NCBI GenBank assembly: GCA_025363655.1
Contig: JANYDK010000048.1
Location: 1-37,863, forward strand
Direction: 5' to 3'
From: Deltaproteobacteria bacterium
Lineage (GTDB): Bacteria; Myxococcota_A; Polyangia; Polyangiales; JADJMO01
Length of the DNA stretch: 37,863 nucleotides
In this document: piece by piece, positions 36,639-37,863 of the stretch
Layout: the number at the start of each line of letters is the position of its first letter
Numbering within the stretch: the stretch's first letter is position 1
The notes under the pieces: model-generated
Databases searched by the model: none
Seen by the model: the letters and a program-made list of their open reading frames with translations, nothing else
What the model was told of the DNA's origin: nothing
Made by a program: the position numbers and the translations under genes

Positions 36639-37625
36639 ATGCTTTGGTCGCGATGCTGCCTCGTCCTCTGCGCTGCGGTCGTGTCGGGATGCACGCTCGT
36701 CAACAATCTCGACGAGTACACCGCCGGCAGCCCCGCGCCCCTCGACGGCGGCGACTCCAGCGTCGACGTCGCCGTCGACACCGCTCCGGTCACCTGCACC
36801 GCGGCCCAGAAGTCCTGCGGCGGAGCCTGTCGCGAAAAGACAGATGACAAGTTCGGCTGCATCGCCGCGACGTGCGACCCGTGCAGCTTCAAGAACGCCG
36901 CTGCTGGTGGGTGCGACGACAAGGGCGCGTGCAAGCTGGGAGCGTGTGCTGCCAATTTCGGCAACTGCAACGGCATCGACGAGGACGGCTGCGAGCTGGC
37001 CGTCGACACCGCCGTCGACGACTGCGGCAAGTGCGGCAACCACTGCGGCGGCAAGGCCAACGCGACGATGACCTGCGTCGTCGGTGCGTGTGCGATCGGC
37101 GGTTGCTCGAGCGGGTTCGGCGACTGCAACAAGAAGGTCGACGACGGCTGCGAGACGGCCACCGACACCCTCCCCAACTGCGGCGCCTGCGGCAACACCT
37201 GCGCGAGCATCGCGCACGCGAGCGCCGACTGCGTGTCCTCGAAGTGCACGCTCAAAACGTGCAACGCCGGATTCGTCGACTGCGACGGCAACCCTGACAA
37301 CGGCTGCGAATGCGGCGCGGCGGGGGGCGCGGCCACCTGCGGGGTGGTGTCGGGTGGCGATGCAGGCAGCGATGCCGACGCCAGCGGCGACGCGGGTGCA
37401 GGCGGCACGTGCACGTTCCTCGGTTGCGCGGCTGGCTTCGCCGACTGCAACAAGAACCTCACCACCGACGGCTGCGAAGTGAGCCTCCTCACGGACGCCG
37501 CCAACTGCGGCAAGTGCGGGCTCTCGTGCGAAGGAGCGACGTGCGCCGGAGGCATCTGCCAGCCGACCGTGCTCGCCAAGGGGCAGGCGTTCCCCGGCCA
37601 GCTCGCGCTCGACCGCGACTACTAG
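36639..37625 (+). CDS. Cys-rich repeat lipoprotein, apparently truncated by IS630-type insertion
   Basis: This encodes 328 residues from ATG 36639. Signal and lipobox VVSGC are good, followed by an Asp/Gly/Pro tether. The body has about five copies of a disulfide-rich unit: CGACGNTC..., then C...GFGDCNKKVDDGCE. Such repeats with DGCE ends are common in surface lipoproteins of Polyangia, and are usually followed by a C-terminal beta-propeller opening with LASGQ..P..LALD..xVYW. Here the frame reads PTVLAKGQAFPGQLALDRDY and then stops at TAG, exactly where the propeller would start and where the IS630-like element begins. So this is probably the 5' piece of a larger gene. The truncated protein may still be exported and anchored. 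Confidence 0.82.
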   Translation: MLWSRCCLVLCAAVVSGCTLVNNLDEYTAGSPAPLDGGDSSVDVAVDTAPVTCTAAQKSCGGACREKTDDKFGCIAATCDPCSFKNAAAGGCDDKGACKLGACAANFGNCNGIDEDGCELAVDTAVDDCGKCGNHCGGKANATMTCVVGACAIGGCSSGFGDCNKKVDDGCETATDTLPNCGACGNTCASIAHASADCVSSKCTLKTCNAGFVDCDGNPDNGCECGAAGGAATCGVVSGGDAGSDADASGDAGAGGTCTFLGCAAGFADCNKNLTTDGCEVSLLTDAANCGKCGLSCEGATCAGGICQPTVLAKGQAFPGQLALDRDY

Positions 37626-37863
37626 TTCGTCAGCCCCCCGGCGATGGGTGAAAAGTTGCCCGGTCGTGCGCGAATCGCCGAGCACGTCGAGCATGAAGCG
37701 ATATCGAGTTCAGCTCACGATCGACGAGCGCGCGGGCCTCGAGGCGATGTTGGCGCATGGACGGGTGGCGGCGGACCGCGTGAAGCGGGCTCGGATTATT
37801 TTGCTCGCGGACGCCGAGCTGACTGACGAGGAGATTGTCGACGAAGTCGGCGCGGGCATCGCG
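37625..37863 (+). mobile_element. Left end of an IS630-family insertion sequence (runs off window)
   Basis: The element probably begins at 37625 after a TA target at 37623-37624 in a CTAG context, the preferred IS630 target. The first bases are GTTCGTCAGCCCCCCGG, likely part of the terminal inverted repeat; the right end lies outside. A transposase gene begins 68 bp in. Confidence 0.65.
37693..37863 (+). CDS. IS630-family transposase, N-terminal helix-turn-helix part (3' end outside window)
   Basis: The first 57 residues are visible from ATG 37693, beginning MKRYRVQLTIDERAGLEAML. The following VKRARIILLADAELTDEEIVDEVG is the HTH opening of IS630/Tc1-type transposases (RxxRxxLLADxxxxDxEIAxxxG). 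The catalytic DDE domain is beyond the edge. The hydrophobic ILLADA and the acidic turn are diagnostic enough to name the family. It reads in the same direction as the lipoprotein it appears to interrupt. Confidence 0.85.
   Translation, partial: MKRYRVQLTIDERAGLEAMLAHGRVAADRVKRARIILLADAELTDEEIVDEVGAGIA

What the first reader, a model, noticed from the sequence alone, without database searches (positions are those of the whole stretch)
36639..37863. Cys-rich lipoprotein cut by an IS630 element; the stop codon is formed at the junction
SEEN: the coding frame ends ...LALDRDY followed by TAG, where TA (37623-37624) fits the IS630 target in CTAG and the G is the first base of the element; a transposase N-terminus follows at 37693. 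KNOWN: family members continue from LALD.. into a VYW-type beta-propeller. INFERRED: the insertion removed the propeller domain and produced a shortened surface lipoprotein.
Basis: partly seen in the sequence, partly recalled or inferred. Interest (0 to 1): 0.5.

Follow-up and report, generated by a model that had tools for sequence, protein, structure and literature searches.

The report
Lipoprotein gene split by IS630-type element
A jumping DNA element landed inside a gene for a surface protein and cut it into two still-readable halves, an ordinary gene disruption; the likely other half was found on another piece of the same genome.

Summary
The frame 36639-37625 (328 aa, lipobox VSGC) stops where a multi-copy IS630-type element begins. 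Eight left ends and eight right ends were found, each at a contig end. One right end, the start of contig C127, continues as a beta-propeller: GACGAACTA|CTACGTCTACTGG. Joined at one CTAC the frame reads LALDRD-Y-VYWTNF, 633 aa. Five hinge-sharing homologues, one in the same genome, run about 265-314 aa past this point. The propeller was thus split off, not removed: its 306 codons are open but lack a signal peptide.

One detail is corrected. TAGTTCG is conserved in 8 of 8 left ends, so the stop TAG (37623-37625) is the element's own sequence. The target is CTAC 37619-37622 (TA 37620-37621), not CTAG 37622-37625. The other seven left ends sit in CTAG. CTAC on both sides suggests a 4-bp target duplication instead of the family's usual TA, but this rests on one insertion. 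This is ordinary IS biology and of low interest.

The parts
36639..37625 (+). 5' half of a lipoprotein gene: signal-peptide-like start with lipobox VSGC (Cys18), Cys-rich repeats, and the hinge CxGGxCxPxxLAxG before the propeller; ends in an IS-borne TAG
   Evidence: no Pfam or NCBIfam match; homologues
37619..37622 (+). target-site copy CTAC (Tyr codon at 37620-37622); the matching CTAC follows the right end at G000:C127:36-39
37623..37649 (+). left terminal inverted repeat of the element (TAGTTCGTCAGCC...CGATGGGT); its first three bases are the stop codon. Under a 2-bp TA model the element would start at 37622
   Evidence: ungapped inverted-repeat alignment with the right end, 21 of 27 identical
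37693..37863 (+). N-terminus of the transposase (57 aa visible, cut by the contig end); a C-terminal 42 aa and stop were read from right-end copies on other contigs
   Evidence: the six best relatives in other genomes are 45-52% identical

Best explanation
An IS630-family insertion sequence of about 1.2 kb (length inferred from two related elements), present in at least eight copies with near-identical ends, inserted at a CTAC site inside a gene for a Cys-rich lipoprotein with a C-terminal YWTD/NHL-like beta-propeller. The TAG at the element's left end stops translation after Tyr328. The rest of the gene, 306 codons from the Tyr to a normal stop, lies after the element's right end, now at the start of contig C127. 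Shown: both junctions, the shared 4-bp site, the reading-frame continuity and homologues that span the site. Inferred: the two halves still face each other across one element; the truncated half is exported as a lipoprotein without its propeller, so the full-length function is lost; the right half is at most made as a leaderless fragment.
For: Eight left ends and eight right ends, each at a contig end. Of 8 right ends only C127 has CTAC in place of CTAG, and of 8 left ends only the window has CTAC. The joined frame gives LALDRDYVYWTNF. L102 aligns across the site over joined residues 285-622 (35%, E 2e-38); L100 (29%, E 4e-16), L128 (24%, E 6e-10) and L103 (29%, E 1e-5) span it too. L100-L103 and L128 continue about 265-314 aa beyond the Tyr column, against 305 aa here. 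Residues 180-292 of the right half match YWTD propellers in the PDB (best E 8e-20) and designed Pizza propellers match as well. The right end encodes ...WRFTTGDARIKLARLYPSRLG*, similar by eye to the C-termini of IS630-type relatives. The window junction is not a chimera with another found copy: its CTAC differs from the CTAG of the other seven.
Against: The middle of the element is not in the assembly: a DDE_3 search found one place only, a different element on C51. C75 and C127 are separate contigs, so present adjacency is inferred; recombination between IS copies could have moved the halves apart after insertion. The visible N- and C-terminal pieces match no NCBIfam or Pfam model above cut-off. 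L101, one of the five homologues, has no alignment across the site at E 0.001; its continuation was seen only by reading its frame. Synteny gives no support: the upstream gene's best relative in four family genomes is 42% identical, and the joined lipoprotein finds nothing convincing beside the four fetched relatives (best E 0.14, on the upstream side in an unrelated-looking frame).
Confidence: 0.92

Rival explanations
1. The 2-bp TA model: the element is GTAGTTCG...CGAACTAC, it duplicated TA only, and the window copy later changed its first base from G to C, so that it happens to match the base after the TA on the right.
For: Two-bp TA duplication is the rule for this family: 34 of 39 in vitro ISY100 insertions had a normal TA duplication (PMC2170065, passages read).
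Against: It needs a chance change at exactly the terminal base, to exactly the matching letter. Leaving that base aside, the ends show one difference in 1,870 nt compared with a reference copy (1,051 left, 819 right, self-comparisons taken off). A 4-bp duplication (TTAA) is reported for the IS630-family element ISHsp2 (PMC3606827, passages read).
Confidence: 0.2
2. The lipoprotein normally ends at this residue, and the propeller on C127 is an unrelated gene that happens to follow another copy of the element.
For: Several relatives of the Cys-rich repeats carry more repeats or other sequence at this place instead of a propeller (for example L070, L076, L078, L096).
Against: The four of four family-genome hits that reach query residue 314 or more, plus one paralogue in the same genome, continue in frame past this point. 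Frame, spacing (LALD-xxx-VYW) and the shared CTAC fit one site.
Confidence: 0.03
3. IS-to-IS recombination moved the two halves to different places after insertion, so the gene is split at a rearrangement end rather than by a single inserted element.
For: At least eight copies with near-identical ends offer substrates; C75 and C127 are not joined in the assembly.
Against: No positive evidence. Every found copy ends a contig, so broken contigs are expected without rearrangement.
Confidence: 0.08

Closest known systems
IS630 family (IS630, ISY100/ISTcSa)
   Same: A transposase frame between terminal inverted repeats; TA inside a preferred CTAG target (7 of 8 sites here). IS630's preference for TA in CTAG is the title of Tenzen and Ohtsubo 1991, seen only in a reference list.
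   Different: The window site is CTAC, and the shared bases there suggest 4 bp duplicated rather than TA alone. The catalytic part could not be read.
ISHsp2 of Halomonas sp. ZM3 (IS630 family, 4-bp TTAA repeats; PMC3606827, passages read)
   Same: An IS630-family member with a 4-bp duplication around a central TA, if the 4-bp reading here is right.
   Different: Target TTAA rather than CTAG/CTAC; that paper describes a two-frame transposase; no sequence comparison was made here.
MITEPsy1 of Pseudomonas syringae (PMC3189936, passages read)
   Same: Duplicates 4 nt, CTAG or YTAA.
   Different: A 100-nt MITE that the paper relates to the IS5-family element ISPsy2, not to IS630.
Cys-rich lipoproteins with a C-terminal propeller, as in G022:C137 (L102)
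   Same: Hinge CxGGxCxPxxLAxG followed by IAVDxxxVYW repeats.
   Different: The window gene has more Cys-rich repeats before the hinge and is interrupted.

Membership tests
IS630 family insertion sequence | Terminal inverted repeats | tested here: met
   21 of 27 identical in an ungapped alignment of left and right ends, TAGTTCGTCA identical at the tips
IS630 family insertion sequence | Insertion at TA, preferably CTAG | tested here: met
   7 of 8 left ends and 7 of 8 right ends at CTAG; the window pair at CTAC, still with a central TA
IS630 family insertion sequence | Duplication of TA only (2 bp) | tested here: inconclusive
   Seven sites are palindromic CTAG and cannot tell; the window pair shares CTAC on both sides
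IS630 family insertion sequence | IS630-type transposase N- and C-termini | tested here: met
   N-terminus 45-52% identical to the six best relatives in other genomes (12 of 143 other genomes match). One of these, G060:C544 (50%), scores 229.8 bits against NF033545 (cut-off 100). The C-terminus was compared with L106 and L107 by eye only. The pieces themselves pass no model's cut-off
IS630 family insertion sequence | DDE/DDD catalytic domain | not testable with these tools
   The middle of the element is absent from the assembly; DDE_3 was found only in a different element on C51
Bacterial lipoprotein | Signal peptide with lipobox and Cys | tested here: met
   MLWSRCCLVLCAAVVSGC, read by eye; no predictor was run
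YWTD/NHL-like beta-propeller (right half) | Sequence similarity to solved propellers | tested here: met
   phmmer best E 7.8e-20 to LRP4 over residues 180-292, also designed Pizza propellers; Pfam only below cut-off (Vgb_lyase E 0.007)

The most novel reading that the evidence does not exclude
This IS630-type element duplicates 4 bp (CTAG, or CTAC here) rather than the TA dinucleotide, and its own termini begin with the stop triplet TAG; the window insertion, being at a non-palindromic site, is the one of eight found copies that reveals it.
Probability: 0.7. Interest if true: 0.25.

Novelty: new member of a known kind. Interest (0 to 1): 0.15.

Why it matters
It is a clean example of how assembly breaks at IS copies hide split genes: the two halves would be annotated as separate proteins, one a short lipoprotein and one a leaderless propeller at a contig start. 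The unusual CTAC site also gives a small test of how many bases this branch of IS630 duplicates.

Tried and rejected
Rejected: a transposase catalytic part on C51; it belongs to another IS630-family element whose N-terminus barely matches (34% over 32 residues, E 0.44).

Tried without result: a DNA search for close relatives of the element in 144 genomes of the order (five candidates scored per genome). 36 other genomes had matches at E 0.001 or better, but the rows listed are short (about 22-82 bases) and none covers the element's tip. Target repeats of relatives: one search scanned 17 loci (14 distinct places). Two had no N-terminal match and two ran off before a right end; convincing TA-flanked inverted repeats were seen in L062 and, weaker, in L061, both at CTAG, so uninformative on duplication length. 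Synteny by the upstream DegT-type gene gave nothing.

Paper searches on this family's target repeats (1 paper; 259 papers, 15 listed; 41 papers, 15 listed) led to ISHsp2 as the one IS630-family 4-bp case in the passages read; this is not a claim that no others are in print. Passages of four papers were read, none whole. A possible restart at TTG C127:25-27, overlapping the transposase stop TGA, was noticed but cannot be tested here. Structure prediction was not run.

Full report
The observation. The window is contig C75 (37,863 bases) of a 9.0-Mb genome in 150 contigs. The frame from ATG 36639 runs 328 codons to TAG 37623-37625 and ends ...GQLALDRDY. It begins with a signal-peptide-like stretch and the lipobox VSGC, followed by Cys-rich repeats; neither Pfam nor NCBIfam matches it. 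From 37693 a frame MKRYRVQLTIDERAG... runs off the contig end.

The element. Bases from about 37618 recur at seven other places at 99% identity, all close to contig ends (18 matches in all, of which 8 including the window are the element; the other 10 lie in the lipoprotein part of the query). A protein search with the 57 visible residues finds the same eight places (8 matches at E 0.001). The right end was found from contig C127 (below). A 66-base query there gave 23 matches: 8 are right ends, 7 are cross-matches to left ends through the inverted repeat, and 8 are short others. Eight left and eight right ends are thus known, each within about 250 bases of a contig end. The two ends form an imperfect inverted repeat, 21 of 27 identical, with identical tips TAGTTCGTCA. 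The right end encodes the end of a transposase, ELASEVAAWAARHNADPAPIRWRFTTGDARIKLARLYPSRLG and stop, similar by eye to the C-termini of IS630-type relatives. In one search, 13 of 144 genomes of the order, the own one included, hold a relative of the N-terminus; one of these relatives scores far over the cut-off of the NCBIfam IS630 model. The visible pieces themselves pass no model's cut-off. The middle of the element is not in the assembly: DDE_3 occurs once, in a different IS630-type element on C51.

The boundary. In the seven other copies the left junction reads xxCTAG|TAGTTCG, and at seven right ends CGAACTA|CTAGxx. In the window it is GACTAC|TAGTTCG, and on C127 CGAACTA|CTACGTC. The TAG stop at 37623-37625 is therefore part of the element in 8 of 8 left ends, and the target is CTAC 37619-37622. 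If only TA was duplicated, as is usual (PMC2170065, passages read), the element begins with G in seven copies and with C in the window copy, a change that happens to match the target. If four bases were duplicated, no change is needed. Leaving that base aside, the ends show one difference in 1,870 nt compared with a reference copy, so I favour the second reading; a 4-bp duplication is on record for the IS630-family element ISHsp2 (PMC3606827, passages read). It rests on one insertion and is not proven. Most copies could be compared over about 135 bases per end only.

The missing half. A propeller from a homologue (L102) found, in the own genome, a frame that is open from the first base of contig C127. 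C127 begins with 35 bases of the element's right end, then CTAC GTC TAC TGG ACC AAC TTC..., and the frame ends at a TAG at 955-957, 306 codons after the start of the Tyr codon. Joined at one CTAC in a script, the protein has 633 residues and reads ...LALDRDYVYWTNF.... Among the loci then held, homologues align across the junction: L102 (35%, E 2e-38), L100 (29%, E 4e-16), L128 (24%, E 6e-10, a paralogue on contig C31 of the same genome) and L103 (29%, E 1e-5). L101 has no such alignment at E 0.001. The four family-genome hits that reach query residue 314 or more (L100-L103) and L128 go on for about 265-314 residues past the Tyr column (one search counted 268-317 from the Asp of LALD); the right half here has 305 residues after the Tyr. 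Against a universal rule: other relatives of the Cys-rich repeats have more repeats or other sequence at this place, so the propeller follows in the five examined members with this hinge, not in the whole repeat family. The right half is a propeller by similarity to solved structures over residues 180-292.

What it does. The best reading is a recent insertion by a multi-copy IS: the ends of the copies are near-identical, and both gene halves are open frames. Translation stops after Tyr328 at the element's own TAG. The truncated product could still be exported and lipidated; the propeller half has no signal peptide. In another copy (L135) the propeller's frame holds a stop 29 codons before the element's tip; C127 itself shows only 35 bases of the element. 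A TTG that overlaps the transposase stop could restart translation, but this is speculation. Loss of the full-length function is the likely outcome (inferred).

What remains open. C75 and C127 are not joined in the assembly, so adjacency today is inferred from the shared CTAC, the frame and the homologues. An upstream-gene synteny check gave no support. The six named relatives found with the lipoprotein are two Myxococcales, two Deltaproteobacteria, one Nannocystis and one Candidatus Eisenbacteria record, so a myxobacterium-like host is a guess.

Verdict. It is an ordinary IS insertion; the only unusual point is the CTAC site.

Noticed in passing
G000:C127:16-28 (L124): GAGG (16-19) followed by TTG (25-27) at the element's right end: the TTG overlaps the transposase stop TGA (26-28) and lies in frame with the propeller half, so it could restart translation.
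   Followed up: partly
G000:C51:92370-92735 (L056, L105): A different IS630-family transposase (NF033545, 237 bits, 314 aa) lies near the end of contig C51.
   Followed up: partly
L061 and L062 (G122:C175, G141:C537): Related elements of about 1.2 kb sit in CTAG, but their transposase frame meets a stop after about 148 codons, which may mean a frameshift or decay.
   Followed up: no
G000:C91:12518-12758 (L002): The only internal difference among the left ends compared: base 100 of the element is A in this copy and C in the others.
   Followed up: no
G000:C116:148629-150593: A cluster of Cys-rich repeat matches to the same lipoprotein, in frames of 648 and 1029 aa, one match with an internal TAG.
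   Followed up: no
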